From Dendrophyllia cribrosa (taxonomy: Eukaryota > Cnidaria > Anthozoa > Scleractinia > Dendrophylliidae): a stretch of 64,000 nucleotides of DNA. The translations under genes were made by a program, and so were the position numbers. The notes beneath the pieces were generated by a model that was not told the origin of the DNA, made no database searches, and saw only the letters and a program-made list of their open reading frames with translations. Every line of letters begins with the position of its first letter. The stretch's first letter is position 1. Of the stretch, positions 34,444 to 62,200 are shown piece by piece. The DNA is taken from positions 3,527,783 through 3,591,782 of the forward strand of contig JAJLRJ010000002.1 of the NCBI GenBank assembly GCA_024195265.1, read 5' to 3'.

Positions 34444-34940
34444 GCAAACTGATTCTTACGGCAAGGAGAAGGAATCGAGACAGATGTTAGTAAAAAACAA
34501 ACATTTAAATACATTTGCCGGATATTTCGGTTTGCAAAACAACCCTTCTATGGAAGCTAGGAGAGAAAAATAAATTTTTACCACAATTGCCGCTAAACTC
34601 GCAATCTGATTGGTCGACGTGAGTGGTAAATGAGAGTCCAGACAACGGTGCTGACGCTAACATCACGCGCGCTTGAAAAAAAAACCAATCAGATTGCGAG
34701 AAAGTTATAGACAACGCTTGCTCTTTCTTTGCTGTCCACAACATTTTGACCATGTGATGACGTAAATATATTACGATATATTAGAGGATGATGTTGCTAA
34801 GGCCGACATTGTAACCGCTATCAAAACAGATCATTCAGCAGTCATCCTTGAAATAGACAGCCTCAACTGACCAACCACACGGTCCGTCCTTCTGGAAACT
34901 AAATAACAGTCTCTTAGAAGACACTGATTACATTCTCCTG

Positions 34941-36734
34941 ATGCGAGAGATGTTCCCTGAATGGAAAACAGAAATCAATTTCTGTAATGATCCAAGAATA
35001 GTGTGGGACTGGATTAAATTTAAAGTTCGCCAAGAAACCATTACTTACAGTAAACAAAAAGCCCGTCAAAGAAAAGAGAAATTAACAATAATTGAAAATA
35101 AACTTAAGATGTGTGAAGAAGAAGTAGCGGCATCTCCAACACCTGTAAATGTAGAGAATTTAGAAAAGGTTAAAGCGGAATATGAAAGAGAATACGACTA
35201 TATTGTGTCAGGTTCGATTATCCGCTCTCGCATCACATGGTACGAAAAGGGAGAAAGAAACACTAAATTTTTTTTAAACCTTGAAAATAATAAAAAGAAA
35301 AAGAGCTCAATAAGAAAGCTGATTCAATCAAACGGTAAAGAATCTACCAACCCAAACACAATTTCAAAGGAAATCGAATTTTTCTTTGCGGATCTTTACG
35401 ATGAAAAGGCAGAATTTACTTTTGATCAAATGACTTGCCCCTTCTTGAACACTGCTAATATTCCAAAATTATCAAATGAAATGCGCGACACATGCGAGGG
35501 CGAGCTAACATACGCAGAATGTTTTAATATTCTCTCCACGTTTAAAAACAACAAAACACCAGGTAACGACGGCTTATCTGTGGAATTTTATAAGGTCTTT
35601 TGGCCGGAAATCGGGCGGAATCTTGTCGATTCCTTCAATTATTCCTATCGCCACGGTGAACTCTCGACAACTCAAAAACAAGCAGTAATAACTCTTTTAG
35701 AGAAAAAAAATCGAGACAGACGACTAATAAAGAACTGGAGACCAATTTCCTTAGTCAATGTTGATGCAAAAATTGGGTCAAAAGCGATCGCAAAACGACT
35801 TGAGAAAGTGCTTCCTCAAATTATTCATTTCGATCAAAATGCTTATGTGAAAGGGCGAACAATTTTTGACGCAGTTCGCACCATTGATGATGTAATTGAG
35901 TTCACTAAACGGAAAGGCCATAAAGGTATTTTGACTGCTATTGATTTTGAAAAGGCCTTTGATTCGATTAACCGGAGTTTTCTTTTTAGAACTTTAGAAG
36001 TGTTTGGTTTCGGCGCTTCCTTTATTACCTGGATTAAAACTTTTTACAATGACATATCAAGTTGCGTGATTAATAACGGCTTTACTACACCTTTCTTCCA
36101 AGTTAAACACGGAGTTCGTCAAGGGGATCCCCTCTCCCCGTATCTTTTTATTATTGCTCTCGAGACTTTGGCGATATACATACGAAATAATAACCAAATA
36201 CGAGGCATTAAGATCAACGAAACAGAAATGATTAAGTTGGTCAATTTCGCGATTGACATAACAACGTTCGTTAGCGATAAACCTTCTTTTTTTAATCTCA
36301 TGGATAGTGTGAAACATTTTAGCAGATACTCGGGATTGAACATAAACCGTGAGAAAATCGAAATCCTTCCACTGGGCAACATGGAGCTTCATCACAACGA
36401 CATGGGGGTTGAAGAAATAAAAAAATTTGTAAAAATTTTAGGTGTATTTTTCACAAATGACAAAGTACTGTTTATTAAAAAGAATTTTGGATCCATCGAA
36501 AAGTCTGTCAAAGAACTTTTACATGGATGGAGCTGGAGAGGACTCACGTTGATTGGCAGAATTCAAGTCATTAAATCATTTGCTATCCCAAAAATTCTTT
36601 ACCGCGCGAGTCTTATTGCATGCGATAAAGACTCAATACAAAAACTTAATTCAATTCTGTTCTCCTTCGTATGGAAAGGTAAAGACAAAGTGAAACGAGC
36701 GGCACTGATAAACCCAATAGAAAAGGAGGCCTGA
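34941..36734 (+). pseudogene. LINE reverse transcriptase, inactive
   Basis: The frame of about 597 codons carries RT signatures in order: NNKTPGNDGLSVEFYK, NWRPISLVNVDAKIGSKAIA, AIDFEKAFDSINR (motif A), KHGVRQGDPLSPYLF (motif B) and LVNFAIDITTFV (motif C). Motif C should be F/Y-A-D-D; here the first catalytic Asp is Ile, so the enzyme is dead. The frame ends in an early TGA at 36732-36734, where coding continues in another frame. Confidence 0.88.
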
Positions 36735-36736
36735 GT

Positions 36737-37915
36737 ATGCCTGATATTAATTCAATGATTATGACACAAAGAGTTATGTGTATAAAAAGATATCTGGATC
36801 CTTACCCAGCAGGCTGGAAAATTTTTTTGGACTTGTACCTAAAAAACGTAGGAGGGAAATTTCTCTTTCACTGCAATTTTGACTACAAAAAGCTCTCGAT
36901 TACTGTCCCCTATTTCTATAAGGGGTGTCTTATGTCATGGTCCTCTCTAAATGAAAATAACCCGTCCACACTTGAAGAAATTGCAAATGAAGTTTTGTGG
37001 AATAACAAGAATGTTTGTATCGAAAACAAATCTGTTTTCAGCAAAAGACTAACTGAATGTGGTTTCTATAAAGTTGGCGACCTTTTCGACACTACAGGAG
37101 AGCTTGTGTTGGGAGGGGAATCGCGAAGTCCAAGTATCTGCCCCGTTGATGTCTTCCTATTATTTAGTATATATAACGCGTTTCCACTAACATGGCGCAA
37201 CATCTTAAATAGGAATTTAATATCAATTCATACGCAACAGTTGAACCCAACAACCTTTCATCTCTACATTAACAACGATGAATACAATCTGGAGAAGGTT
37301 AAATCCAAAACACTGTATCGCATTTTGGTCTCGAAAATTGCAAAAAATCCAACATCGGTCAAAAAATATGTTGAAACCTATAACACTGATTGTTTTCAAC
37401 TAAATTGGAAAGCTATATTCCTTTTACCTATTCAAATAACCTTGAGTACTAAACTGCGCGAATTTCAATACAAAATATTAAATAGGATCATGTATACAAA
37501 TGATATGCTTTACAAGTTTAAAAAAGTCGAATCTCCTTTGTGCTATTGGTGCAAAACAGATATCGAAACTCTTGAACACTTTCTTTTCCAATGCCCAAAA
37601 GTTAGACTATTTTGGAATGAAGTGGAAATGATATGTAAAGATAAATTAAAGCTTACCAAGCATTTAGAAATTAGAGATGTTATTTTTGGAATTGATAATC
37701 TAGAAAGTAATAGCAATTTAATTAACTATATTATCTTGGAAAGCAAATATCTCCTTCACTTCTGTAAACTTAGTAACAAGATTTTAACTCCACAATTATT
37801 ACTTGAGCGAATTAAAAATACATACCAAATAGAATACTCCATAGCGAGCGAGAGAAATAACCTTAGTTATCACTATCAAAAGTGGGAGCCCCTAATCGCT
37901 CTTATTTCTTCTTAG
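36737..37915 (+). pseudogene. LINE ORF2 C-terminal region (frameshifted)
   Basis: About 390 codons continue the ORF2 protein after a one-base loss in the A-run at about 36720. It contains thumb-like and zf-RVT text: CYWCKTDIETLEHFLFQCPK, with Cys/His ligands, then LFWNEVEMICK. It stops at TAG just before the 3' UTR. It belongs with the preceding frame as one broken gene. Confidence 0.85.
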
Positions 37916-41230: not shown

Positions 41231-44200
41231 GTAAATGAATATAGTTAGCGTGCATTTATTAATGATCAAATGCAAATACAAAGTCGAGGAACACACCCGA
41301 TATATATAACATGGTTGTTATGGGGCCGCAGCTCGGCATCAAGGAGGAGTCAGCCTGTCATCAATTATGGACCACTAAACCGGCCCTTTGTTCGTTCAAA
41401 AGAGTTTAGTGTTCCATCAACACTATATATTCGGTTTCACTCCACTCCTAGCTCGATGTATGTTGATCGTCTTCCTGCAACAACGTTGTGTAGGGTTTCA
41501 TAACATGCAAATGGGCCTATTAACATTGTATATTATATGTAAAACAATTTGACAGAAAAAAAGCTCGTTGTAAAGTTGCTGTGAAGTGATTTTCAGATTT
41601 TGTTAGTAGATAGGAAAGAAGGGTTCTGGCACACTCTTCAACCGCCCCTTTTTAGCACAATTTCTAATTCTTTTCACTTTTCTCCTACTTTCATCACTAA
41701 CTCTGAATTTGCATGCGATCGCATGAAAATTGTTCCAAATTTACATATCCCGACTCATAAAAATTAACAAAATCATCAAAAAAAAGCTGCTAAATTTTCA
41801 GCATTTTACAAATTCTCTGCAAAAAATCATCGTACAATTATTTAAAAATCAACAAAATCCATCTTGTTCACCAAAAAATTCTCATAAAATCAAACAGATA
41901 CATTCGTTAATGAAAAATTCTCATAAAATCAAACAAATCCATCAGTTCCCCTAAAATCCCACAAAATTCATCAGAAATGAATTTTGTTTGAAAAACAGCG
42001 GTTGAAGAGTTTGCCAGAACCCTTCTTTCCTATCTACTAAGGTAGGGAATAAAGAAAGAAAGATAAAATTTATCCCCAGAAAACTTTATGGGAATAAAAA
42101 AATTTATCCCCAGAAAATTTGGGAATCAAATCAATTTTATTTCTTTCTTTCCAAATCAAAACTTTTATTGGAAAGAAAGAAATAAAATTGAATTTGTTTT
42201 TTTATTTTTTTCTTTCCAATAAAAGTTTTGATTTGGAAAAGATTTTTCTCCAAATTAATTTCATTTAGGGGAAGATCTCCTTTCAAAATAAATTTCATTT
42301 TTTTTTTTTTCTAACTAAAATCCATTTTTTCATGAAGTTTTATGTTGAAGATAGGCTTATCTCTCTTTTTCCCCTCTGTTTATTTCCTATAATTTAGTCA
42401 ACTCTTTTCAGGAAATAAATATATAAAATCATATTTTATTTTTTTATTTCATTTTTATATTTAACTAAAATGGCGAAACAAACAGACAAACATTTTACAA
42501 TTTCAGATGGAAAAAAAACCAAAACATTCACCTCTATCAATTCTGCTGCTAAAGAATTTAACATTTCAAATTGTGCAATCACCAATGCTTTGAAAAAAGG
42601 AAACACATCTATCACCAGAAGATCGGATAAGAAAAAATTCTTTCTCGGAGAACCAAAACCAAAATCAAAACAATCAGATACAGAATTTTCTTCACTTCCA
42701 ATGGATGAGGAATGGTTTGATAAATTCAAGATAGTAGTTCCAAACATGGATGAGTTTGGTAAAGGGATTGTTAATATATTATTTATGGATGAGGACATCG
42801 CATTTGATTGGAAAAAAAGAGAAATTCTATATAATGAGGAAACTGTTTCATTTTTCAAGATTATCTCCGTTATCTGTAAAGTAGCATTTCCGATTAACAG
42901 AGATTATTGTTTGGAAGAACAGAATAAAAAATTATCTGTTGGGGAAAAAAATGCAATTGACTTGAAACGATTGAATTTCATTTCCAAAATGAGGAAAAAT
43001 GAAAGAACCTTTCAAGTGGATTTGTTCAATAAAATCAAGAAATATAAATGAAATCTATTTCACAGCTGAAAATCAATGACTAATAGCTAAAGTTTCAGGG
43101 AAAAAAACTTTTTCTCCTGAAAAAGTTTTTTATTTCAAATTTGCTTCATCAACCACTTTTTATCCTTTTGGAGGAGAAGAAGACAAAATTCATTTTTCCA
43201 CAAGGAGTGATATCTATTAAACATTTTAATCTTGTAACTCAAAATGGATGATGAAAGCGAGCGAAGCGACCTCACCTGCTCAGAGGATGAATCAATGAGT
43301 GAAGATGAAACCCCAACAACATCTGACGAGGAATTTATTGTCTCTGATTCAGAGATGGAAGAAGCAGAGCAAAATGAAGAAGAGGAAGACATGATAGAAC
43401 TCCTCTTTGAATCATTTATCAATCTCCAAGAGGAATACAAGATTCATAAAAATGAACTCCAAAAACAAAGTGATCTCCTCTGGAAAATCCACCGGGAATT
43501 GAAAGAAAGAGGTGTTATTTCATAAATATGAATGTGAAACATTCATATTCTATCTCAGAGATTTTCCATATCACTCAGTGGAACCCAGGAATTGAATTTA
43601 TCAGGATATCCTTTCCATTTAACCAAGGCTTCCTTTTTCTTCTGATCGAGGTGAATAACATTTTCAATGCGAAATACGCTTTGTGTTGTCCTTTGGAGTT
43701 CTGCTTCATAAAATGATCCAGTTATTTTTTCTCCCAACAGATCGACTAACCTATACGTTACAGGATTTGTGTTTAAAACTTCATCGATAACAAATATCTC
43801 CTCTGTCCAGTTCGGGGTGAAACCTTTATCGAATATCTTTCGTTTGTATTTTGATATTCTAACCCTGTCACCGATCTTGAATTTTGCTGGGTTGTGTTTT
43901 GCATAAATCATATCTCCGAAAAGATTAGCGAAAACCTTTTTCTCATTTTTCCGTTCGCTAGCCTGCGTTGGGGTCATCCGAATGCTTGAATGAAAATGGT
44001 GATTATATTGATCTACTAACTCATCTAGTTTGTCAAAAAACACTGTATTATTGTTAGCAGAAAACATCCGGAAGAGTCGTTCCTTCATAGTCCTATTCCA
44101 ACGTTCAACCACAGATGACTTTTCTTCATTCTCTGTGGTATACAATTTTATCCCATTCTTATTCAGGAGATCCTTCATAGTTCCATTGAAAAATTCACTT

Positions 44201-47200
44201 CCTTTGTCAGTCCAAAGCATCTTCGGTTTTCGCTCCCTGAATATAGATTGGAAAGCATCGGCTACTGTTTGTCCTCGCTTATCTTTCAGAGGGCGAATCC
44301 AACCGAACTTTGAGAAAACATCGATCACCATCAGGAGATATCTTATTCCTTTGTTCCACTTCGAATATTTCCCCATCTCAACCAGATCAGCCGCCCAAAT
44401 GTTGTCAACACCATATGCAATAACTCTTCTCTTTGGAAATCTTCTCCTGATTGGCTGGTGAAGTTCATTTGCTAGATTTTGAGTCCAGCCTTCACTCAAA
44501 ATCTTTTCCCGTTTTTTTGGGCACCCAAACCAAGTTTTTGTTTTACATCAATGGTATTTCTCGCCAAAGCATGACCCCACTGTCTTTCTTTCCAGGGAAT
44601 GGAATCCAAAGCGGCAACCATTTTCCTGTCTGCTTTATTTTTACATTGATGCGGGTTTGATTGTTTTGCGCAAACTGAATAATCCACATCATGCTGCATA
44701 GCAACTGCGTCTGTTTTTCCTGTGGGTTGTTGCCAGATTTCAAGAATCTTTCCAGTATCATCAAATCTGACTTGCTTTTCCAAAGGGTTATACGGGCCAG
44801 TGAAGTTATGTCCGGGAAGAGTGAAACCTTTCTTTGGTTTTGGTAGTTTCCCAATCAAGTTATGAATATCCAATCCTTTTCCATCCAAATCAGCTCGATC
44901 TGTCTTATATTTTCTGTTTGGTCTAATCGCTGTGGATAGTTGATTCAGCATATCGGAAGAGGTTTTGGCAAGAAATGGTTTCATCTTATCTAAAGCAAAA
45001 TCCAATGCTTTTTTCTGAGTGTTCTTATTTCGCAACAATTCACTAGCTCCATAACGACCCATTTCAACTGTTTTTTTCCCGAGCCAGGGAAGAGCATGAG
45101 CAACGCCAGTCAATGCTAATTCACCAAAGCCCCCACCTTGTGAGGGCAGACTCAGTTTCCCGAGGGCTTTGCCTTCACAAATCTTGTCTTTTTGATTCCA
45201 CAGGAAGCGCAATGGCAAAACCACATCTTTCTTCCATTTTTTGCGATCATGATTCCAGATGGCTCAACACATTCAGTTTGTTTTTTCTCCTTCACACAAT
45301 ATGACTTCATTTTCAATCGAAATATTCTTTTATGAATCTTTCATTTTGCATTGTATCAGTCAAACTGAGAGGTTTGAGAATATCATAGAAATCTTTCCCC
45401 TGCGACCATTGATGGAGGAAGAAGAGGCAATAATACCCACAAAGAACACTGTTTATGTTTTGATACTGACTGTTGTTCCAAATCACTGGTTTGGAACTTT
45501 TGAATTCTTTTGGAAATCCCATTCCAAAAGAGTCAAAATACCACGTGAATTTTTTCCCCGGAGCACAACAAACCCAATGAGTTCCTGCATTTTCAAGTGA
45601 ATCAAGATTAATAATACATGGAGTGTGTTTTTGTGGCATGAATTGATCTCTCGCAAAGATGCCTTTGAAATTGGGAATCCTCAGATATTCAATCCACTTC
45701 AACAGATCAATATTTGACAGAGGTTTAATTACAAATTTAGGCCTCACAATATTTCTCCGAGAATTGGGATGTTGTTGAATGGACTGTTCGTCCCCAGCAG
45801 AAGTCCTTTGCCCTTTTTTGATTTTTTTTTCCCCATCCCAACAGGGTTTCGTCTCCAACTTCCAATAAATGGGGGAGGATACGCTCCCAATCTTGGAGCT
45901 CCTTTTCCTTTTGGTCGGCCAACTCTAGGAGCACCTTTCCCAAACAAATTCTTTACCATGTCAAGTGCTAATGGGATTCCAATGGATGCCAACACACTTC
46001 CTAACAATCCACCAGACTGTTTTACAGATGGTTTCATCACCAACTGTCCTCCTGATTGCAGGGCAACCAAAATGTCTTGTTTCTGTTTATTTGTCAACAA
46101 ATGTTTATTGTCAATCAGTTTCTGAATTTTATTTTGGGGGATGAGAAATCCACCCACCTGACCACCACCTTTTCCACTTATTGCTTTGACGACTTGACTT
46201 GCTCCTTCACTCGCTAAACCAGCCAGTGCTGACAACCCAAGTGTTTTACCCAAGGTGGGTATCAATGTTTTAGCCAAAGGAACAATAGCAGAAAATAGAC
46301 TTCCACCTTGTTTCATTACTTTTCTAATTTGTGTTTTTGATATCTTTATCTCAACTCCTTTTCCCAGAGATTTTGCTTTTGTGATTCTTTTAATTTGATT
46401 AGTTGTCAGCATCAGTTCATCGCTTCCACTTGTTTGATTACTACCCAATCTCAGGGTGATTGGAGTGTTTGTTCTGAATGCTCTTCCAAGCTTTTCTTTT
46501 TGTCCTTTAGACAAATTTATTTTATATGGGTGATATGTTGTCATTTTTAATGATAACATATGTTTTCACTCCTCTCAGCTTCGCTTTAAGCAATGACCAG
46601 CTCATTACCAACTTTATTAATCTTAGCTGTTTCCTCATAAAGAACCACTGCATGCACATTGAAGGCTGCAGCTGCATTGGCATTCAGCGTATATCGAAAT
46701 ATCAACTGCTTGGGATCTCTTGTTGGTTTTTCAGCTTGGTAAGACAAATCGAAATAAATGAGACCATAAAGTGATTGAAAGTTAGCCAAATTCAACTGAG
46801 TACCAGTGTTGAAGTCATTTTTCCTCATTGCATAAGCCATGACATCATTGAAGATTCTGACTTTTGATTCCGTGTCATAGTCAGTTTCAGGATAAAACAC
46901 TCCATTTCCATACTCCAATCTGCAAGTTGACAGGGATGAGTCATCATCTGCTTCATTCAGCTTGAAAGTATCCATCAAATATGGAGAGTCTTCTGCAGGG
47001 ATATCATGGGGTGGAGCGGATCTTTTCAGCCAGACAAAAATATGCTTTACATTATCAATGCTCGCTGAAATCTGGAAGAATCCTGATGATGTTGCGGGAG
47101 CTGATTGATCATATGTCTCCCTCAGATACTTCCATTGTGTTTCTTTCAGGAATGAACTGATAAATTTATCATAAAGAGAATCTTTGGGAGTCAGTCTTGG

Positions 47201-50200
47201 CACCCAAAGCAAAAATCTGTTGATGACAACTCTTCCAGCAGCAGCAGCAGCAGCCTTATGAATCAATTCACCATCCTGTTGAAGATTAATTTCGAATTGC
47301 AACTGCATTGGGACCAACATCCTGCCTTCCAGTTCCTCGAAAAAGGAGAAACGATTCAGAGGGATAATGCAATTAACATCTTTAGCACCCCCACCACCAT
47401 TATCTTCAACTGCTTGAGTTTGTAGTCGTCTCGCTTCAAATCCTAAATTCGTATTAGCAGTTGTTCCATCCGTATCCAAATACCAGAAACTGTTCTTTGC
47501 TACTGATCTGCTGAAATCATCTGAGTATTCCAACAGATTTTTAACAAAAGTAACTTTATGTAGATTGTCAGGTTCGTAAACAATCTTCCCTGCAGATCTG
47601 ATTGTTATATGTTTTATCAGGGAATGTGAGCCATTTATGACTGTTATCCTATCAGCAGCAGCATATCCAGCACCATTTGCTAATTTCTGGAGTTGAAATT
47701 GCACTTCAAAATAAGCGTTATGCCAGTCATAAAACGCTGATCTGTCATTGATGGTGAATTTATAACCATTTTTTGTTTGTGCTTGCCCATTTGCTGGGAC
47801 TCTGAGTACATCATCCAACTGGAATCTTACTAATTCATTTCTTTGGAGAAATTCATTCGATCGAAAAGCCATTTTAATAGATTATTTTAAATTCCTTGAC
47901 CACTGATAAGTCTATTCAAGATATCATTTGCACTTTCTCTCTGTGGTTGTTTCGTTGGGAGTGAAGCAGGGAGCGAAGCGACCTTGATTGAAGGGCGTGA
48001 TTGTGGTTTTTTTCCTCGTTTTCCAATCTTCATATTTCCCAGTTTTTTCATGATTAAATCACCTGATTTTTCAACTGCTATTTTACCCAGTTTTTCTCCA
48101 GCGTGAGAAATTCCTGCGTCCAAAGCTTTTTTCGCAAATGGTTTCGCAACTTTCTTGAGAATTCCTTTCATAGCTGGTCCTACCATCTTTTTCAGTGGCT
48201 TGAAAATGGAATCAAAAATGATTCCTGTTCCTTTATGCTTATAAACAAACTTCCCCAGTTTGGGGTGGTAATAACGAGAAAATTCATATGCTTTCATTTT
48301 ATAGTCTTTTTTTTAATATCAACGAAAATGCTGTGTCTGCCCCATTCAGGTTAACAATTCGCCTTCGGCCATCTGTGATATACATCCGAATTGAGCTGAT
48401 CGTGTTTTTATTCACAGGGCAGAATGCTATTTTTATAGGTTCACGCTCAAAACTATATGATGCCTGCAAAACAGATGTGGAAAAGGAATAGATGATATCA
48501 GTCTCTTCCCCATCCACAAGTGAGTCATTTGTCAAATCACAATGAATGTTCAACATATCAGTATCTTGACTGAGATTTGGAACATTAGGACCAACATTAA
48601 CTTTCTCCTTCAGAATCTTTTTATCAAACCCCACAAGATCATGGAAATTCGATTGGGTGAAATCAAGTTGATAATTTTCAGCCAGTGAAACTGTCACTCT
48701 GAAAGTTTCATTGCTGAAAGCAAGATTGATTGGAAAAACATCTTTTTTCCCAGATTCTTTCACCACTGTTGCTTTCCGAATGAAATCATTTATCCCAGAA
48801 TACTCCCAAACTCCAGCAGGAAACGCAATATCAGAAAATGTTTTCCCACCATCAGAGGAAAATCTAATCAGTTGATTTTCATATTGTGGATTGATGTTAT
48901 ACCACGTAAAACTCATATTGATGATTCGTTTCAACCCAACAACATATTGTTCATTCAAATCAAGAATAATTGGACGATTAAATTTTGTTGTGAAATCTGC
49001 AGGTTTGTTTTGTTTGTTCTTAACAGCGTAAGATGACAGGACGATTTCTCTTTCCATTTTATGTTTTGAAATAGGTTTTGTACAGCTTTTCATGCTGAGG
49101 TCTGTTAATCACTGACTCTTTCAGGAGAATATCGAGAATTGCAACTCCTTCATTTCTCACGTTGATGTTAGTGTTCCCAGCAAGGATAGAGCCGATAATG
49201 ACTTCAAGTTTCTGGAGAAGATCTTTAGGATCGTTGAAAAATGAGATGCCACGTCCGTATCGTTTTCGGGCTCCAGAGCCTTCAAATGACTTGAGTTTTT
49301 TTCTATAATAGTTCATATAGTCATTCAATACTTTTCTTTTTTCTTTTATAGCCTGCCATTCTATATCCCTTTCATTTTTAGTTATTCTACCTTCATTGAA
49401 TTTTTTGTTCAGATAACTGTTACGGTTGTTCAGTTGTGCTCTTATATTATGAGCTGGCATTATAATGCTGTTTGCAATTAAATTTTTTTTCTTTTCTACT
49501 GGAACATTTGGCTGAGCTAAGACTTTATCTGTTTTGCTATAATTTGATAAAGCCATCTTATCTAGCATTTCATTAATTTTATCTTCTTCTTCAATAATAT
49601 CTTCTTGAGCTTCTTCCCATCCTTTAAGTTCCTCTTCCTCTTCCTCTTCCTCTTCCTCTTCCTCTTCCTCTTCCTCTTCTTCCACTTCATAATCAGGAAC
49701 AGTTGATTTATATATAGGAGATTCACCTTCTAACTCTTCCAGTACTTCTTCGTATGTTGGTGGTCTTATTGGAATTTGCTTAGCTGTTTGTGATGATACA
49801 ATCTCATCATCATCATACAAACCGCCAACTTCCATCTCTTCAAATGGATTGACTTCGGGATAATAATCAATCTCCGTGAGTTTGGCTTTTCCAACTTTCT
49901 TTTTCTGGGGAAGTGGTCTTAAATTCGATGCAATTACATCATCCAGTTTCGATGTGATGGGTTTGAACATTTTTGCCAGTCCAGTTTGGCTTGTTTCTTC
50001 ACCCAACTTTTTCTGGGTGATGACATCGTGAATAAAGTTGATTTTTTTTCCCAAAGCAGATTTGCTTTTAGCCATTTCATTCCATTTCAATAAACTCATT
50101 TTAAATCCAAAAATATGATATTGAATATGATATTGAATATGATATTGAATATGATGTTGAATATGATATTGAATATGATATTGAATATGATATTGAATAT

Positions 50201-53200
50201 GATATTGAATATGATATTGAATATGATATTGAATATGATATTGAATATGATGTTGAATATGATGTTGAATATAATAAAATGAAGATTCCAAATTATGATT
50301 GTCAGGATCCAATTACAAATTTTCGACAGCTCCATCCTTTCATGCCTGATCAAGCTTTCAGAATGTTGATCTGCGGCCCTTCAGGATCGGGGAAAACAAA
50401 TGTTCTCCTGGATATGATTTTGAGATTGTTGTATTATGATAAAATTTATCTCTATGCGAAAAATCTTAACCAAGCTAAATATCAACATCTTCTGAAAACA
50501 TTTCGCCCAATCAACAAAGAAGCTGGGTATGATGTTGTGGAGGCATCCCCGGATGAAATCATCCCAGTTTCTAAATTGTCAGGGGAGAATCAAAAACTGG
50601 TTGTTTTCGATGATTTTGTTTGCGAAAAGAATCAAAAACCCCTAATTGATTATTTTATCCAAGGCAGGCATAAGAATTGTTCTGTGATTTATCTTTCACA
50701 AAGCTATTTCCAAACACCAAAAGATATCCGCCTGAATTGTTCTCATTTTTGCATCTTTGAATTCCCCAGCAACAATGAAGTTTCCCTACTTTGTAGGGAG
50801 ACACAAGTCAGCAAAGAAGATTATAAGAAAGCAACACATGATCCATTCTCTTTCCTGTATGTGGATAAGCCGAGGAAATTCATTGCTAAAAACTTTGATG
50901 AAAGACTTTAAAATGAGCTATTCAAATGGATTGCTTTCTGAAACAACAAGCACTTCTCGAGGGGGTCGAGATGGAAAAGATGGATTACCAGGAGTTGGTT
51001 TTAAACTAACATCCACAGGGGATTATGATATGTCAAACAGAAAACTAGTCAATGTCGCTGAAGGAACAGCAAATGGTGATGCAGTCACAAAACATCAAGT
51101 TGACACGCTAGACAGAAGTGTGGAAACCAAACTGATTCAATTGAGAGCAGATTCTTTGCAGGTTGATGGATCCTCCCATATGACAGGGGATTTGGACCTC
51201 AGGGGAAAGAAACTGATTCTTCCTGGAGAGATTGACATGGATCGGAAACTGATCACAAATCTGGATACAGATGAAAATCAAGATCTTTCTGCTGTGAACA
51301 TGGTAACGCTGAAAAAATATCACCCAGCTGCACCTGCTCACACGCATGAAGTGACGAAAGACATCGATTTGAAAGGACTGTTTCATGTCACACAATCAAA
51401 ACAGCAGACTTATGAGGATCTTTCCGCAAACTATAACAATCTGATCTCCTATGACGATGCAAAGAATGTTTTTGTCAGCAGAAAAGAAACATTTCCAATG
51501 GAAACAAGCTTGGATATGGGAACGAATTTCATCTTCAACGTGAAAGATCCAACAGCAATCGATCAAGCAGCAAATAAAAAATATGTGGACACGGTAGTCT
51601 CCAGGTTGGCAGCTAATAAACTTTCTTTGTCAGGTGGAACAATGACTGGGGAATTGGATATGGGAGGAAAAAAACTTGTTGGTCTTCCCGATCCAAAAAC
51701 ATCCAATGAAGCAACATCAAAACAATATGTTGACACACAGCTAAATAACAAGACAGTAGCTCTGGCAGAGGAACTGATTAAAACAGAAGCTAACCTTAAA
51801 AAATATGTTAATGAATCGCATATATCTTCAACCTCCCACTTGAAGGATGAATTCCGGTATTTGATGGAGGATGTGGATGAATCCAGAGCTGAACATAATA
51901 TGACAGTGACTGGTTTATCTGATTTTGTAAGTTCTCCTCATCAGATCAATAAAAAAGCTTTCAATTTGAAAATAACAAAAGATGTTTTCAATGAATACTC
52001 TGGGAGACTTGGTTTCAACATGTTAAAACTTCCAGAAGGGGAATATACGATTTGCATTGAATTCTTCCCCGCTTCCATGACGGGTGTGAGCGTTGACGTT
52101 GTTTCAACCAGCTTGAATATCAATCAACAATCAACGAAGAAGTTTTCCAACTATTCTCGATCAATCATTCACATGCATAAATGGCAGATTTCTCCACCGG
52201 AGTTCATTTATCTGGATCTGAAATGGCAAGGAACAGCATCATCAGCTGTTCAAGGCCCAGCAAATCTGATTATTTATGGCGTCAAAGGTTCTCAATCAGA
52301 TGTGCCAAGTTCTGTTTATGATGCTCCTTTCGTTTATGAAAATCAGACGATGACTATGCAAACTGATTTAGATATGAATGGTCATCAACTAATCGGAAAT
52401 AAATCATCTTTTTTCTTGAGTGGGCATCTGGGTCAGCCAGCATTATATATCAAATTTAATGGGGATGATGATGATTTGTTGATTCCCATTGATTGTACCT
52501 TAAAGTCAATTGTTACTTATGCTACGCATCGAGGCTACCCAGGTTATCCACCCATCAGCGTTGAAATTGTAAAAAGAACCTTCACATCACCCAAAGACGG
52601 TAGAACACAAACCATACCGATTAATCTCCCATTAAAGGCATTGGATTCTATTCAGGTCAGGCCCTTCACCACAAACCCTTCCACAGCTTTTAGTTACCGG
52701 GTTTCTTTATTGTTTGAAGTCTAAAAATGAGCATCAAAAGAATTAAATCTTTACGACTAAGCCGTGATCAGCGAAGGCAGAGCATCTTCAATTTCAACCA
52801 CATCTCCCCTGACATAACAGAAGAAAAACTGGAAGAGATCAAGCAACTTTTCCGATTCTATCATAAAAGATTTTGGTGTTTGAAAAGAGCTCACAAACAT
52901 TTCAAGCGAATGAATTTGTTTGTGAATTTAACATCTTCCGCTCTTGTTGCGATTGGAGCGATTGTTGGAGGAGTGACAATGAATCCTGTGATTTTAGGAG
53001 TGATTTCAGGTGCAGGATTGGTTGTTAAAACAGGGAATGAAATGAAGAAATATGGAAACAAAATTGAAATGACAAAGTTCGCTTTCACAACTTACGAGAA
53101 AACTCTGACTTATTTGCGTTTTGCTTTGAGAAGTGGAAAATTCATTCGAAATGAATTCCTTCCAGCAATGGAGGTGGTTGATGGGATTGTGATTGATTTG

Positions 53201-56200
53201 GGATTGGATTTGGAGAAGTTTGAGAAGAAATATGATTTGTTGTTTGAGTGATCTCATATCACATTCTCAAGTGATGAGGGTTCCATAAACAGTTCAACAA
53301 TTTCTGATGCTGAGAACTCATCGTATTCAAAATCATCTCCATTAAAATCATATTCAATAAACATATCAATTAAGTCCTCTGGGTGTTCACCTCTTTCTCG
53401 GATTTCTAGAATAATTTCTATCGCTAAATCATCCAAAAATCCGAGATTCATCAATTCTATAATATAATCACTATCTTCCATCATTCTTTCAAAATCTTCG
53501 ACATTCATTTTCTTTGGAGAAAAAAAAATAATTTTTTTTTTCATTTCTTGGAAATGAAAATTCAAACTTTTTAAATATGGTCTTTATCATTTACAAAAAC
53601 TAAAGCGTGATTTATGGTTGATTTTGGCCATGATTTCTTTTTAGCCTTTTGAATGATTTTTGCATCCCTTTGATTTTCCCTCAATCTATCAATAAGGAAA
53701 TCAAATTCAGGAGATTTCCATGTGATGTGGTGAGAGATCTCCTCCGAATCAAGGAAATGGTTTTTCTTCCTGAGAATTTGATTGAAAAAAACTGTGTTTG
53801 AAATTCCAAACTTTTCTATTTCATCACAATCAAAAATATCTTCTCCATCAACTTGGAGAAAAGGTTTATCTGTTATTTCTTCCTGAATGAAGAAAACTTT
53901 TTTATCTGATTTTCTGGTGAACTTTTTGTTTTCTGAATTGTTTTTGATGAACCTCCAAATGGTGGAATTTGGAATACCAGTTTTTTCTGATGCTTCTTTG
54001 AATGTGAAAAAAATCTGCTTTTCTTTTCCTTCTTCCTGGATTGAAAACTTCATTTTAAATGAAAACATTTTTTTTTATTTTTCATTCAAAATGCCAACTT
54101 TAAAAGAATTGAAAGATCGTGCACGTTCGGAAGGAATGATTGGATTCTCCAGGATGAAAAAAGCTGATTTGGAAAAAGAGTTGCAAAATCCACAGAGAAA
54201 AATCATCAAGAAAACATCTTTTCCTGAAGTGAAATCAGCTGTTCAAAAAGTTCTTCCAGAAAGAATCTCGACAGTTGTTGAGTCATCCATTGATTCAATG
54301 AATTCCTGGTTTGGAAAGATAAAAAAAAGAGTTGATTGGAATTTGAAGGAAAAAGCCCGGGAAAAACTTTTGAAGTTGAACACGAAGATTGGAGAAATGC
54401 TGAAGAGACCTGAGTTTGATATTGAAGAAAAACCGGGGTTGGGTGGATCGACTTTTATTATAAATGGAAAAGAAGGATATTCCGCAGAAGGATTCTTGAA
54501 AAATGTGAAAGGAAATGTGGTTGAAATTCTGAAGAAACATTTTGGGTTCAAAGTGAAAATGGTTTTGGTTTGCAGAATGATTTCTCATGATTTAGCGCAG
54601 GGAACAACCATTGAAAATGATGCCTTCTTTTCTTCCCTGGTTGAAGAAGTTTTTGAGGGAACTGACTTGGAAAAATTGTTGAGAGAAATGAATGAGAGGA
54701 TGTTGGAAAACATGCGGAATTTCCAAAGGGGAAGAAGCAACTGGAGATTATTGCGAGTTGAAAGATTGGAAATTCATCTGGATGAAATAACTGTTGGAAA
54801 ATTCATTCCACTTCCTGATTGGCTTGCTGCAAAAAAAGCTTTGACAAACATGAAAAATGAAAATGATGATGAGTGCTTCAAGTGGTGCATTGGAAGATGG
54901 AAAAATCCAGTGGAGAAAAATCCACAAAGAATCACTCCTTTATTGAGAAAACAATGCGAGGAATTCAATTGGGAAGGAATTTCATTCCCCATTTCATGGA
55001 GAGACATTGACAGATTTGAAAGACAAAATAACATTTCTATGAATGTCTTAGGGATTGTTGATGGGAAACAAATCGTGACTTTGAGAAAAGCAAGGGAAAA
55101 GAAAGAGAATCATGTGATTCTTTTCAAATTGAAAAGCGGAGAAAATGAACATTTCGCTTTGGTGAAGAATTTGAATCGATTGTGGTTTGGAGAAGATTCC
55201 AAAAACAAAAACCAAAGATACGTTTGTGATGGTTGTCTCAATTCATTTAACTCTAAAAAAACATTTGACGTTCATCAAGAATTTTGTATGGATGATGGAG
55301 TGAAAGCTGTTCTCCCTCCAGAAAAATCAATCATGAAATTCAAGAAAGTTCAATGCGCAACAACCGTTCCCTTTGTCATCTACGCTGATTTTGAGTCGAT
55401 TTTGGAGAAAACAGAAAAGAAAATTGGGGAAAAAACAGAGCAAATTCAGCATCATGTTCCCTGCAGCTTTTGTTTTCTTCCTGTGAGCCAAGTTGGGGTT
55501 GATTTCTCCCCAGTTTTCTTTCGTGGAAAAGAAGGAGATGATGTTGGGAGAGAGTTTCTGGTGAAATTAGTTGATCAGGTGAAATGGATTCTGAATGATG
55601 TGCGAAGACCAATGCTGAGAAAAAATTGGAAGAGAATTCTTTGGAAGAAAGGAGAAAAGGAAGCATTTAAGAAAACTGATATTTGTTGGCTTTGCAGGAA
55701 AAAGATTAAGGAAAAAAAAGTTGCTGATCATTGTCATCTGACTGGGGAATTTCGCGGAGCTGCTCATGAATATTGTAATTTGCAAGCGAAAGTGCCAGAT
55801 TTCACACCAGTCTTCATTCACAATTTAGATGGATATGATTCCCATCTTTTCATCAAAAACATGGGAAATGAATTTGGAGAGATTGATGCAATCCCAAACA
55901 ATGACGAAAAATATGTTTCTTTCTCCCTGAAAATTGTTTGGGGAACATTTGAAGATGAAGAGGGAAAAAAACATGATTTGAAACATGAGATTCGCTTTGT
56001 TGACTCCCTGAAATTTATGAATTCTTCTTTGGCAAATCTTGTTGGAAATTTGGGAAAAAATGATTTGCATTGCTTAAAAAGATTTTTCCCAAATGATGAT
56101 GAAGTTGATTTGCTTTCCAGAAAAGGAGTTTTTCCCTATGAATTCATGGATTCATTTGAGAAATTTAATTGTGAACTTCCTGGGAAAGATGCTTTTTTCT

Positions 56201-59200
56201 CCCAGTTGTCTGGAGAAGGAATTTCAGATGAAGATTTTGCTCATGCTGAAAATGTCTGGAGAAAATTTGGGATGTTGGACATGGGAGAATATCATGATCT
56301 CTATTTGAAGACGGATGTTTTTCTCCTGACAGATGTGGTGGAAAATTTTAGGAAAGTTTTGTTGGAAAACTATCTGTTGGACCCCGCATGGTTTTTGACT
56401 GCCCCCTCTTTCTTTTGGGATGCTATGTTGAAGATGACAGGAGTTGAGTTGGAATTGATTTGTGAAGGAGATATAGAAATGTTTCGGTTTTTTGAAAGGC
56501 AAATTCGTGGAGGAGTTTCCACAGTCTTTCATAGATTTTCTCAGGCAAACAACAAATTTATGAAAGATTTTGATCCTTCCCAACCATCAAAGTTCATCAT
56601 TTATTTAGATGCAAATTCCCTTTATCCAACTGCGATGGTGCAACCACTCCCTGTGGGAGGATTTGAATGGTTGAGTGAAGGGGTTTTGAAGAAATGGGAG
56701 AAGATTATTGATGAGGAAGGTTATGGATGTGTTTTGGAAGTTGACTTGGAATATCCAAAAGAAAATCATGATTTCCACAATGATTTTCCTTTAGCGCCTG
56801 AACTCCTGGAAGTTGGGGGATTCAAAAAGTTGATTCCCAACTTGATGGATAAAGAAAAAATGGTTTTGGATGGAAGGAGTCTGAGACTCTTTCTTTCCCT
56901 GGGAATGAAACTGAAAAAGATTTGGAGAGGAATTGGATTCAGAAATGAAGCTTTCATGAAACCTTTCATTGAATGGAATACGAAACTGAGAACAGCAGCC
57001 AAAAACGATTTTGAGAAAGATCTTTTCAAACTGGCAAGCAATGCTGTTTACGGGAAAACCATGGAAAATGTTAGGAATAGAATTGATATGAAACTGGTAA
57101 ATGATAGGAAGAAAAAAGCAAACTTAGTGAAAAAAATCAACTTTAAACACGCAGCCAAGTTTGGAGATAAAGTGGCTGCTGTTCATATGAGGAAAACAAA
57201 AGTTACTTTGAACAAACCAATCTTTGTTGGAGCAGCAATTCTTGATCTCTCCAAAATTCATATGTTCAAATTTCATTATGGTTATGTGAAAAAAAAGTGG
57301 GAGAATGTGAAAGTTCTTTATTCTGATACAGATTCCCTTATTTTAGAGATTGAAACGGATGATTTCTTTGCTGATACTGCTGGAGATGTTGAGAAATGGT
57401 TTGACACATCTGGATATCCGAAAGATCATTTCGCTGTGAAAAATGGTTTTCCTGTTGGGAAAAACAAGAAAATTTTAGGAATGTTTAAAGATGAAGCTGG
57501 AGGAAAAATCATTCGTGAATTTGCTGGATTGAGAGCAAAATGTTATTCCATAAAGATGGATGAGGGAAAAGGAATCAAGAAAGCAAAGGGAACAAAAAAG
57601 AATGTTGTCAAGAATAAGATTTCACATGAAGATTTTATGCGTGTTCTTCATGGTGAAAAATTTCCTCCAATGAAAAATGTTTCTCTCCGATCACATCAGC
57701 ATGAGATTTTCACTGAGCAGATTTTGAAAGTGGCTTTAAGTGCTTATGATGATAAGAGAGTTGTAATGGATGATGGAGTGAACACTTTAGCTATTGGTCA
57801 TTGGAGATTGTCTTCTCCTCCAAAAGGATAAAAAGTGGTTGATGAAGCAAATTTGAAATAAAAAACTTTTTCAGGAGAAAAAGTTTTTTCCCTGAAATTT
57901 TAGCTATTGGTCATTGATTTTCAGCTGTGAAATAGATTTCATTTATATTTCTTGATTTTATTGAACAAATCCACTTGAAAGGTTCTTTCATTTTTCCTCA
58001 TTTTGGAAATGAAATTCAATCGTTTCAAGTCAATTGCATTTTTTTCCCCAACAGATAATTTTTTATTCTGTTCTTCCAAACAATAATCTCTGTTAATCGG
58101 AAATGCTACTTTACAGATAACGGAGATAATCTTGAAAAATGAAACAGTTTCCTCATTATATAGAATTTCTCTTTTTTTCCAATCAAATGCGATGTCCTCA
58201 TCCATAAATAATATATTAACAATCCCTTTACCAAACTCATCCATGTTTGGAACTACTATCTTGAATTTATCAAACCATTCCTCATCCATTGGAAGTGAAG
58301 AAAATTCTGTATCTGATTGTTTTGATTTTGGTTTTGGTTCTCCGAGAAAGAATTTTTTCTTATCCGATCTTCTGGTGATAGATGTGTTTCCTTTTTTCAA
58401 AGCATTGGTGATTGCACAATTTGAAATGTTAAATTCTTTAGCAGCAGAATTGATAGAGGTGAATGTTTTGGTTTTTTTTCCATCTGAAATTGTAAAATGT
58501 TTGTCTGTTTGTTTCGCCATTTTAGATAAATATAAAAATGAAATAAAAAAATAAAATAAGATTTTATATATTTATTTCCTGAAAAGAGTTGATTAAATTA
58601 TAGGAAATAAACAGAGGGGAAAAAAGAGAGATAAGCCTATCTTCAACATAAAACTTCATGAAAAAATGGATTTTAGTTAGAAAAAAAAAAAATGAAATTT
58701 ATTTTGAAAGGAGATCTTCCCCTAAATGAAATTAATTTGGAGAAAAATCTTTTCCAAATCAAAACTTTTATTGGAAAGAAAAAAATAAAAAAACAAATTC
58801 AATTTTATTTCTTTCTTTCCAATAAAAGTTTTGATTTGGAAAGAAAGAAATAAAATTGATTTGATTCCCAAATTTTCTGGGGATAAATTTTTTTATTCCC
58901 ATAAAGTTTTCTGGGGATAAATTTTATCTTTCTTTCTTTATTCCCTACCTTAGTAGATAGGAAAGAAGGGTTCTGGCAAACTCTTCAACCGCTGTTTTTC
59001 AAACAAAATTCATTTCTGATGAATTTTGTGGGATTTTAGGGGAACTGATGGATTTGTTTGATTTTATGAGAATTTTTCATTAACGAATGTATCTGTTTGA
59101 TTTTATGAGAATTTTTTGGTGAACAAGATGGATTTTGTTGATTTTTAAATAATTGTACGATGATTTTTTGCAGAGAATTTGTAAAATGCTGAAAATTTAG

Positions 59201-62200
59201 CAGCTTTTTTTTGATGATTTTGTTAATTTTTATGAGTCGGGATATGTAAATTTGGAACAATTTTCATGCGATCGCATGCAAATTCAGAGTTAGTGATGAA
59301 AGTAGGAGAAAAGTGAAAAGAATTAGAAATTGTGCTAAAAAGGGGCGGTTGAAGAGTGTGCCAGAACCCTTCTTTCCTATCTACTTTTGTTAGAAAATAT
59401 AGCTCGCACATCTCAATGAAATACTCTTTAACCATGAATTATGCATGATCGTTTTATTCATCGAGGTGAAATGTGAGCAAAATGTTTAGGTCCTATGAGG
59501 AGCCTAGTCCTGTGTGCTTTTTCAATTAAAGCCAGTTTCCATTTAAAATAGGAATCTTTGTACTTATCATTCACTTTGGTTTAGAATTTGGATACTCCAA
59601 GCAACTAGAATTTTACATTCATTAATAAAATATCTAACCATTCCCTGTATCTTATGCATGCGAAGAATAACAGCCAAGCACTTACTTATTAGCTTTTTTT
59701 CTTTTGTGTTTTTTAAGTAATTTTTTTGGGTAAACTTACCTGCTTTAGCAAGGCAAAAGCGATCAAAACATTTCTTGACTAGCTCTTGTTACCTTTCAGG
59801 GCAAAGAAACTCAGCGATCCCGCTATGTCTGCCAAACAATTGGAAATGGGATCCAGTGAAAGGAAAATGTGAGAAAACCATGGATACGCGTTCTTCGCTA
59901 TATGTGATAGAAGAAGCACTTGAGTGTCTCAGAACTATTGAAGGTGAATTATTTTCTTGAAATTTTAACCAAAAATCTATTTTTCTCTATTTTATGTCAG
60001 GCAAATCTTGCAAGGAAATGACAAACTGACAACGTGCAGAACACCAACTGAAGGTGTAGCACCTGTAATAGTATTAAATATACCCTCCACCTTTCTAATC
60101 TCCTCTTTTATCTCAACAGGTCCCGTTTGTGTGGTTTCCATTGCTGGAACATACAGACAGGGCAAGTCATACGTTTTAAGTGAAGCGTTTGACCAGCCAG
60201 AAGTCTTTCCTCTTGGACACCACTTTGATCCTGAAACAATGGGAATCTGGTTGTGGGTTGTGCCTAAAAAATACAAGGTTTGTTGTTTTTTAAAGGTACA
60301 ACTGTTGTCACGTGATGGACCTCTGTTCCACACACAAAATATTATTGGGGATGTGACTTAAATACCACCAGAGACGAAATGAGAAAATCTGTTAACTTCG
60401 ATGCCCTTGACGTTAAGAATTTTTTTGTAACGCATTTCACTGGAAAATGTTGCTTGATAGCAAGGCATTTCTATCCAGCAACTAACTTCATTAGTCTTTT
60501 AATGTCAAGTATTTTCTAAGATATAGCCCTTAATTAATTTAGTCAAGTGAAGGTCACGTGGCATCTCCCAGCTGCAAAGAGACCTGAGAACATAAAATTC
60601 TGTATTATCATTTAATTCGGATTTAAATTGTGAATTGTTCTATTTCATCCTAGTAATAGGATATTCGTACGATAAACAAATCTAGGCTATTTTTCTTCAA
60701 CAGAAGAATTACAAAATTAACTTGCATCCGTCAGGTTAAGATGGTCACAAATGGTCCTGACAGCGGTAAACAAGTAGCAGTTTTTAAATTTGACGATGGC
60801 GGTTCTTCGTCGAAACATGTCTTGTAAAATTGAAGATGTCGTCATCTTTTTAAAAATTGCTAAGATCAGGCTGTGTGAATTGTTAAACATTGCCGGAATT
60901 AAATTGTAAAGTGAAATGTCGTTTTTCTAAGTGTTAATATTCGTATTCGTTTCTGCTGCTTTTTTAGGATTCAAATGGTCGAAAGTTTACTGTGGTTCTG
61001 TTGGATTCTGAAGGAATTGACTCTGCGTCTGGTAAAGGCCTTGATGATCATCAAATCTTCACCTTAACTGTTTTGTTGGCCTCCGTTTTAATATACAATT
61101 CTAAAGGCGTTCCAACGAGAAGTGATGTCGAAAAATTGGAGTATCCTTTCTTAAATAATGTTTCAGACCACGTGCCTTACTCTTTCAAGAAGAGTTAATG
61201 TTTTTTAAATGTGAAGGTATGTCACTGGTATTGGTATGTCACTGGTATTGGTATGTCACTGGTATTGGTATGTCACTGGTATTGGTATGTCACTGGTATT
61301 GATATGTCACTGGTATTGGTATGTCACTGGTATTGGTATGTCACTGGTATTGGTTGTAAGGGAAGAGCAGAAGAAAACATGTAGATTGCTAAAATTTCTG
61401 GCTGTGTAGTTAAAATGTTGTATTAAGGCTGGTTTACACGTACAATGCAAGCATAACCGTAAGAAAACCGATCTGTTTTCCTTATATATTTTTTTACATT
61501 CAAGCTCCGAGATTAGCAACGGGGAGCCGGCTTTCTATTTCCGAGTAATATTGTGAACCTTAAGGTTTCACTTTTACCTTCGATGCCACTGCTTGTTAGG
61601 TACTCTCTCAGGAAAGTCTTTCCTTTGCTTTAATATTATGCGAAGCAAGTTAATAAAATAAATTTGAATTAGTTTTTATTCAATTCAAATTCAGAGATTG
61701 ATAACTTTTATTTGAGTCGACACTTATGAAGGTTAAACTTTGGCACTGATTTCAAGATTAGTAACTCTGAGAAACTAAAAATAAAATATTTGCATGCAAA
61801 TAGGGTTTTTATGTCTTTCCTCTGACTAGTATTTTGGTAGAATTTGTTCCATTGGTGTTGGGAAGGACATTAGTTGCCCTCTCCTCTAGTCATTGGTAAT
61901 CCATGACTTATTGCAGCAGCAGGCCAGGCAAATATCATTCTCAGTTTCTGTAGCTCGGCTTCATGTCAAGGGACAAGTAAAGACATAAACAAAACCATGA
62001 TCCTTGAAACAACCTGAAATATTTTCCTTTACGATATAAAGCTTTATTGTTAAACTCTCCAAGAGAATTCAGATCCGACCAAACTCTGGGCCCGCTTGTG
62101 GTGAAGAGGACAGTGAATTATTTCACCAAACATTTCCTTATTTCATTTGGCTGTTAAGAGATGTAACACAATCCATTCCGAGAGACTGTACAAATATCAA

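What the first reader, a model, noticed from the sequence alone, without database searches (positions are those of the whole stretch)
44474..44517. Textbook -1 frameshift signal joining PLA2 and integrase in a Polinton
Seen: the integrase has no ATG before its first catalytic Asp. It lies in the -1 frame of the PLA2 ORF, with A_AAA_AAC in the correct frame 12 nt before the PLA2 stop. A 6-nt spacer follows, then a perfect 11-bp stem with a 9-nt loop that contains the stop. Known: X_XXY_YYZ heptamers 5-9 nt before a stem-loop direct -1 frameshifting in retroviruses, and A_AAA_AAC is among the strongest. Inference: integrase is made only as a minor fusion, which would limit enzyme dose and package it with a virion protein, as in gag-pol.
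Basis: partly seen in the sequence, partly recalled or inferred. Interest (0 to 1): 0.93.

Follow-up and report, generated by a model that had tools for sequence, protein, structure and literature searches.

The report
Ribosomal frameshift signal in a Polinton
A virus-like mobile element in an animal genome appears to make its integrase only when ribosomes slip back one base at the end of a phospholipase gene, a trick known mainly from RNA viruses and retroviruses, and over a hundred copies of the element carry the signal.

Summary
The signal is real, precisely placed and conserved. The window holds a Polinton (41605-59385; 6-bp target duplication, terminal repeats 97-100% identical where aligned). 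On the minus strand its PLA2 ORF carries A_AAA_AAC in frame, a 6-nt spacer and an 11-bp stem; the integrase lies in the -1 frame with no ATG before its first catalytic Asp.

The window's own genome gave 135 distinct anchored copies: 132 keep the -1 offset, 125 have A_AAA_AAC, 6 have U_UUA_AAC. The stem pairs fully in all 73 distinct anchored junctions; one unanchored copy breaks its end pair. Integrase codons 1-8 are the only window without synonymous variation among 294 tested.

A second lineage keeps the heptamer in 20 of 20 chosen copies with a different, covarying stem; in 19 of 20 no start codon overlaps the PLA2 stop. A coronavirus-like pseudoknot is possible but weakly supported. Natural in-frame PLA2-integrase ORFs exist.

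Best reading: programmed -1 ribosomal frameshifting makes a PLA2-integrase fusion. Frameshifting, its rate and packaging are untested. The finding misplaces the stop: it lies in the stem's 5' arm, not the loop.

The parts
44511..44517 (-). slippery heptamer A_AAA_AAC, PLA2-frame codons AAA AAC
   Evidence: conserved in own-genome copies
44505..44510 (-). 6-nt spacer GGGAAA
44494..44504 (-). stem 1, 5' arm (contains the PLA2 stop)
44496..44498 (-). PLA2 stop TGA; overlaps the integrase-frame codon TTG
   Evidence: TGA 12 nt after the heptamer and TTG in 119 of 119 anchored copies
44474..44484 (-). stem 1, 3' arm
   Evidence: 11 of 11 pairs in all 73 distinct anchored junctions; 10 of 11 in unanchored L079
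44485..44490 (-). putative stem 2, 5' strand GGCUGG, in the hairpin loop
   Evidence: inferred pseudoknot
44453..44458 (-). putative stem 2, 3' strand CCAGCC
   Evidence: 6 of 6 pairs in 70 of 73 distinct junctions; null P for the window 0.12 Watson-Crick, 0.38 with G-U allowed
44496..45263 (-). PLA2 ORF, zero frame, 255 aa; PF08398 Phospholip_A2_4
   Evidence: Pfam E 1.2e-9
43555..44547 (-). integrase ORF, -1 frame, 330 aa; rve core and chromodomain, no early ATG
   Evidence: Pfam rve 1e-11, Chromo 3.4e-7
41605..43180 (+). left terminal inverted repeat, partner 57811-59385; matched in three pieces, 42310-42365 not matched
   Evidence: TTTGTT duplication on both sides
57811..59385 (-). right terminal inverted repeat
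53887..57831 (+). DNA polymerase B ORF of the element
   Evidence: Pfam DNA_pol_B_2 1.3e-22
50105..50911 (+). A32-like ATPase ORF of the element
   Evidence: Pfam Pox_A32 2.2e-15

Best explanation
The junction is a programmed -1 ribosomal frameshift site. Most ribosomes finish the PLA2 protein at the TGA. A minority pause at the structure just downstream of A_AAA_AAC (an 11-bp stem, perhaps folded into an H-type pseudoknot with the loop's GGCUGG). Both tRNAs slip back one base and translation continues into the integrase frame, giving a PLA2-integrase fusion. The integrase has no start of its own: distant relatives have an ATG-initiated region before the core, whereas here the PLA2 protein takes that place. 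Shown from sequence: heptamer, frame, spacer, stem, lack of a conserved ATG, conservation, heptamer replacement, a covarying stem in a second lineage, natural in-frame fusions. Inferred: that slippage occurs, its efficiency, the pseudoknot, and that the fusion reaches a virion.
For: Own genome, close copies: -1 offset in 132 of 135 distinct anchored places (144 of 147 rows, less 12 places fetched twice, matched by coordinate). Heptamer A_AAA_AAC in 125 and T_TTA_AAC in 6 of 135. TGA 12 nt downstream and all 11 stem pairs in 119 of 119. From heptamer to stem end most positions are invariant or nearly so; the first highly variable site is one base past the stem, and the linker before the heptamer varies freely. 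Codons 1-8 of the integrase form the only 8-codon window with zero synonymous diversity among 294 tested. Second lineage: heptamer in 20 of 20 chosen, integrase -1 in 19 of 20, then a 12-14 bp stem 7 nt downstream with two pairs changed on both sides and 99.2% of cells paired against 30-57% for slid partners. Protein database: 147 of 156 PLA2-only tails contain KN, LN or GN, dipeptides that A_AAA_AAC, U_UUA_AAC and G_GGA_AAC would encode (codons not seen, no chance control). 22 near-complete in-frame PLA2-integrase proteins occur naturally.
Against: No expression or protein data. Of 135 copies, 4 have a broken or changed heptamer and 3 are in frame. Anchoring required a residue encoded by the end of the 3' arm, so breaks there were dropped: of 4 unanchored loci L079 pairs 10 of 11, and L136/L149 have a different stem, 8 bp as measured in L136. 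With codon 9 included, 18 of 301 downstream 9-codon windows are as poor in synonymous change. In the second lineage, shuffles matched the number of doubly changed pairs in 137 of 500. Stem 2 is weak: null P 0.12 (window), 0.01 (L136), 0.03 (L196) with Watson-Crick pairs, 0.23-0.38 with G-U allowed in the six copies that could be scored; L134 lacks it; 3 of 6 kinds of substitution break it. Subclade P0016, P0065, P0122 has an in-frame Met near the same place. Copies are related, so counts are not independent; the six T_TTA_AAC copies may be one or two events.
Confidence: 0.9

Rival explanations
1. Coupled termination and reinitiation: ribosomes stop at TGA and restart at the overlapping NTG (TTGA here), as at AUGA sites of caliciviruses (recalled).
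For: Stop and integrase-frame TTG overlap in 119 of 119 close copies; in one subclade a Met lies there. The capsid-like/protease-like overlap of the same element also has NTGA: GTG 32, ATG 6, TTG 2, CTG 1 of 41.
Against: TTG in 119 of 119, never ATG. In the second lineage 19 of 20 PLA2 frames end at TAG, 24-39 nt after the heptamer, with no NTG at the stop; only L175 has CTG. It does not predict a conserved heptamer, its replacement by T_TTA_AAC, or a conserved stem.
Confidence: 0.04
2. Transcriptional slippage on the A6-A7 run puts both frames into mRNA.
For: A6-A7 run in most copies; an extra A in the run gives in-frame copies such as L073 and L197.
Against: Six copies have TTTTAAAC with no long homopolymer; it needs no downstream stem, yet stems are conserved in two lineages.
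Confidence: 0.02
3. The offset is decay or an assembly error in one copy.
For: Most vertebrate Mavericks are mutationally degraded, with frameshifts (passages of PMC8097293).
Against: Same offset in 132 of 135 copies; most of the 121 scored integrase frames have no stop; terminal repeats 97-100% identical where aligned.
Confidence: 0.01
4. A spliced transcript or an ATG-started integrase isoform is the real product.
For: Named Stylophora gene models join the two domains; 19 of 119 close copies and 6 of 20 of the second lineage have an integrase-frame ATG upstream.
Against: That ATG comes from PLA2 codons in 18 of the 19 and is absent in 100 of 119 and 14 of 20. No RNA data were available.
Confidence: 0.03

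Closest known systems
Coronavirus 1a/1b -1 frameshift element (IBV type)
   Same: Tandem slippery heptamer, spacer of 6 nt, 11-bp stem 1, possible 6-bp stem 2 and a loop long enough to span stem 1. PMC7618472 (passages) gives spacers usually of 5-9 nt, a required S1 of at least 11 bp for IBV, and a minimum L3 of 8 nt.
   Different: Found in a eukaryotic DNA element; mostly A_AAA_AAC rather than U_UUA_AAC (the IBV heptamer is recalled); AU-rich stem 1; stem 2 unproven.
Retroviral gag-pro / gag-pol frameshifting (MMTV gag-pro uses A_AAA_AAC; recalled)
   Same: An upstream ORF followed by an enzyme ORF in the -1 frame, including an integrase.
   Different: No reverse transcriptase was found among the ORFs of the element that I scanned; the upstream protein is a PLA2-domain protein, not Gag.
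Polinton-type integrases with their own ATG and N-terminal region (L001-L005)
   Same: Homologous integrase (37-43% identity).
   Different: There an ATG-started region of tens of residues precedes the core; here it is missing and PLA2 lies upstream.
In-frame PLA2-integrase fusions of related elements (P0130-P0193 and others)
   Same: Same two domains in the same order.
   Different: One continuous ORF, no frameshift needed.
Suggested -1 slippery sites in adintovirus penton ORFs
   Same: Predicted -1 recoding in a related group (PMC11071296, passages).
   Different: Other gene, alternate C-terminus; the passage does not mention the integrase.

Membership tests
Programmed -1 ribosomal frameshift signal | X_XXY_YYZ heptamer in the zero frame | tested here: met
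Programmed -1 ribosomal frameshift signal | spacer of 5-9 nt and a stable downstream structure | tested here: met
   6 nt and 11-bp stem; 7 nt and 12-14 bp stem in the second lineage; predicted structures, not probed
Programmed -1 ribosomal frameshift signal | downstream ORF overlaps in -1 and lacks its own start | tested here: met
   19 of 119 copies have an upstream ATG
Programmed -1 ribosomal frameshift signal | conservation of the signal beyond coding needs | tested here: met
   heptamer replacement, synonymous conservation, covariation (mixed shuffle results)
Programmed -1 ribosomal frameshift signal | transframe product shown | not testable with these tools
   needs reporter assay or mass spectrometry
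Coronavirus-type H pseudoknot | stem 2 pairing loop with downstream sequence | tested here: inconclusive
   6 of 6 pairs in 70 of 73 junctions; 8-bp alternative in L136/L149; null P 0.01-0.38 by rule and lineage; absent in L134
Polinton/Maverick | terminal inverted repeats and 6-bp target duplication | tested here: met
Polinton/Maverick | DNA polymerase B, rve integrase, A32-like ATPase | tested here: met
Polinton/Maverick | capsid proteins and adenain-like protease | tested here: inconclusive
   ORFs present, no Pfam match; protease and capsid names rest on recalled motifs

The most novel reading that the evidence does not exclude
These Polintons have a gag-pro-pol-like expression plan: two -1 slippage sites, one between a minor capsid-like ORF and the protease-like ORF and one between PLA2 and the integrase, so that both enzymes are made only as small amounts of virion-protein fusions and carried in the particle.
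Probability: 0.3. Interest if true: 0.95.

Novelty: new variant of a known kind. Interest (0 to 1): 0.86.

Why it matters
PMC7618472 calls -1 frameshifting predominantly an RNA virus phenomenon, also documented in DNA phages, insertion sequences and transposons (passages). A conserved signal in a Polinton would extend it to virus-like DNA elements of animals. It would explain how the integrase is made without a start codon, suggest how it could enter a particle, and give a short RNA for direct test. It would parallel retroviral gag-pol, and it warns that gene callers may annotate such integrases as starting at a non-ATG codon beside the PLA2 stop.

Tried and rejected
Viral-contig scans with the integrase, its alignment, P0237 and P0271 gave no relatives. 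Rfam gave 26 matches in 42000-46500, none at the junction and none reaching its family's gathering score. A tree put integrase-only rows in one clade apart from in-frame fusions. I do not use it as proof of a single origin: the two sets came from different searches, and the second lineage, which is -1, resembles the in-frame rows P0130-P0136. Stem 2 alone gave a weak test. One search failed by a script error; one search used a faulty pattern and one search replaced it; the PLA2 open-frame count of 0 of 135 was a bug, corrected to 131 of 135. The 311 windows included untested ones; one search gives 294 tested. Samples: 147 rows anchored of 151 loci (L079, L108, L136, L149 not; all four carry AAAAAAC); one search used 56 of 60 longer loci (58 with the junction, 2 of those truncated and dropped). 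Second lineage: 20 chosen of 88 rows; 15 of those refetched and aligned. Protein lists are capped at 120 rows of 5788, 136 and 2100 hits.

Paper searches. The phrase 'programmed ribosomal frameshift' with 'polinton' gave 0 papers, but it misses 'programmed -1 ribosomal frameshift', which PMC11071296 uses; 'ribosomal frameshifting' with 'Maverick' and 'integrase' gave 1 paper, seen as a listing only; 'polinton' with 'frameshift' gave 41, of which 30 were listed. Passages were seen in PMC11071296, PMC8097293, PMC10120064 and PMC7618472; a term search of the first 300,000 characters of PMC5009743 found no mention of Polintons or Mavericks.

Full report
What is there. The window contains a Polinton at 41605-59385. 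Its terminal inverted repeats span about 1.57 kb in three matched pieces of 97-100% identity, with 56 bases unmatched; a TTTGTT duplication lies on both sides and the ends are AG...CT. It carries ORFs for DNA polymerase B, an A32-like ATPase, an integrase with chromodomain, and a phospholipase A2-like domain. The assembly is 627 Mb in 22 contigs, with 2,996 first-look integrase candidates, of which 121 were scored.

The junction. On the minus strand the PLA2 frame reads ... CAA AAA AAC GGG AAA AGA TTT TGA. The integrase is open in the -1 frame from 44547. A_AAA_AAC is in the right frame, the spacer is 6 nt, and the stem is 11 bp with a 9-nt loop. The TGA is in the 5' arm, not the loop as the finding says. 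A Markov null gives about 0.03 heptamers with a stem of 10 bp or more per 64-kb strand, but the window has three other such spots at 9 bp or more, so that null is too kind.

Copies in the same genome. Of 121 scored copies, 119 could be anchored automatically; the other two also show A_AAA_AAC. Adding the anchored copies of a second search, with 12 repeats removed by coordinate, gives 135 distinct places: A_AAA_AAC 125, T_TTA_AAC 6, other 4. The integrase is -1 to PLA2 in 132 and in frame in 3. The PLA2 frame is open for the last 90 codons or to the locus edge in 131 of 135. In all 119 the TGA lies 12 nt after the heptamer and the overlapping integrase-frame codon is TTG, never ATG. The T_TTA_AAC copies are the most telling: both are classic slippery sites (recalled), I see no coding reason for one to replace the other, and the second has no long A run, which speaks against polymerase slippage. 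They may be one or two events.

The stem. All 73 distinct anchored 120-nt junctions pair at all 11 positions; three kinds of base change occur and each keeps a G-U pair. The anchor needed a residue encoded by the end of the 3' arm, so breaks there could be missed: the unanchored L079 pairs 10 of 11, L108 11 of 11, and the more diverged L136 and L149 have a different stem (8 bp after a 6-nt spacer, measured in L136). Synonymous codon draws make a complete stem in 0.31% of cases. Among 56 unique full-length integrases, codons 1-8 form the only 8-codon window with no synonymous change among 294 tested. The next codon, whose third base lies just outside the stem, has a diversity of 0.51 against a mean of 0.16; with it included, 18 of 301 downstream 9-codon windows are as low. 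Codons 3-8 lie past the TGA and code in one of these two frames only, so this points to an RNA-level constraint. Upstream of the heptamer the linker varies freely, and so do integrase-frame peptides there; from the heptamer on they are nearly constant.

Pseudoknot. The last six bases of the loop, GGCUGG, can pair with CCAGCC 15 nt past the stem, giving stem 1 of 11 bp, stem 2 of 6 bp and a 15-nt third loop, close to the coronavirus type described in passages of PMC7618472. It pairs fully in 70 of 73 junctions. L136 and L149 have CUGAUUGG with CCAAUCAG, and L195 and L196 a 7-bp version. Against this, the codon-draw null with Watson-Crick pairs is 0.12 for the window, 0.01 for L136 and 0.03 for L196; with G-U pairs allowed it is 0.38 for the window and 0.23-0.32 for five others (L194 and L195 were too short to score). 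L131 pairs only with a G-U, L134 not at all, and half of the substitution kinds break a pair. I rate it a plausible lead, not established.

A second lineage. A search with an in-frame relative found integrase-only matches, mostly 64-69% identical to it. Of 20 junctions I chose from 88 rows, 20 have A_AAA_AAC; 19 of 20 have the integrase in -1 to PLA2 (L164 has a linker deletion), and 14 of 20 have no integrase-frame ATG upstream. In 19 of 20 the first stop after the heptamer, in the frame of its AAA and AAC codons, is a TAG 24-39 nt on with no NTG overlapping it; L175 has TGA with CTG right after the heptamer. So reinitiation at the stop does not explain this lineage. Seven bases after the heptamer comes, for example, GCCGUCGAGUGAAG, pairing with CUUCACUCGGCGGC. 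On 15 sequences (11 distinct) two pairs changed on both sides, and 99.2% of cells pair against 30-57% when the partner is slid. Shuffles reached the covariation score in 2 of 500 and the paired percentage in 8 of 500, but the number of doubly changed pairs in 137 of 500. Codon draws make 12 or more pairs in 0.09%.

Wider protein evidence. PLA2-only proteins in the listed hits contain, after a linker of very variable length, KN (125), LN (20) or GN (2) of 156; 9 have none. These dipeptides fit A_AAA_AAC, U_UUA_AAC and G_GGA_AAC, but the codons were not seen, a KN anywhere in the tail counted, and there is no chance control. Among the listed proteins 22 are near-complete in-frame PLA2-integrase fusions. 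In the same genome in-frame copies such as L073 and L197 have one more A in the run, while L198 differs in the linker. So the fusion protein appears to be a natural product form. Distant integrases from L001-L005 begin with an ATG and a region before the core that is missing here. One subclade (P0016, P0065, P0122) has a Met where the window has TTG.

Conclusion. Programmed -1 ribosomal frameshifting is by far the best explanation (0.9). Slippage itself, its rate, the pseudoknot and packaging remain to be tested. My paper searches, which were narrow, found no report of this signal; the nearest idea is a remark on predicted slippery sites in adintovirus penton genes (PMC11071296, passages).

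Noticed in passing
window 45313-46565, minus strand: A second -1 overlap: a capsid-like ORF (45744-46565) with a long A run, and a protease-like ORF (45313-45924) with no ATG before its conserved start. In 41 of 60 own-genome loci that could be anchored, the upstream part is -1 to the protease in 30, in the same frame in 6, +1 in 4, unclear in 1; NTG at the stop is GTG 32, ATG 6, TTG 2, CTG 1.
   Followed up: partly
L073, L144, L154, L197, L198: In-frame PLA2-integrase copies beside near-identical -1 copies; L073 and L197 have one extra A in the run.
   Followed up: partly
L001-L005 (genome contigs): Polinton-type integrases in contigs filed as bacterial genomes, two from a tubeworm endosymbiont bin; probably eukaryote contamination.
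   Followed up: no
G000 C1:37489918, 37499726, 37509532: Three integrase copies with equal scores about 9.8 kb apart, suggesting a tandem amplification.
   Followed up: no
window 34857-37915, plus strand: Two overlapping ORFs that read like a LINE-type reverse transcriptase (recalled by eye, not searched).
   Followed up: no
P0016, P0065, P0122: A subclade with an in-frame Met where the window has TTG, so its integrase might have gained or kept a start codon.
   Followed up: no
window 53521-53523 plus; 57900 and 53575 minus: Three other slippery-like heptamers followed by perfect stems of 10-13 bp; coding context not examined.
   Followed up: no
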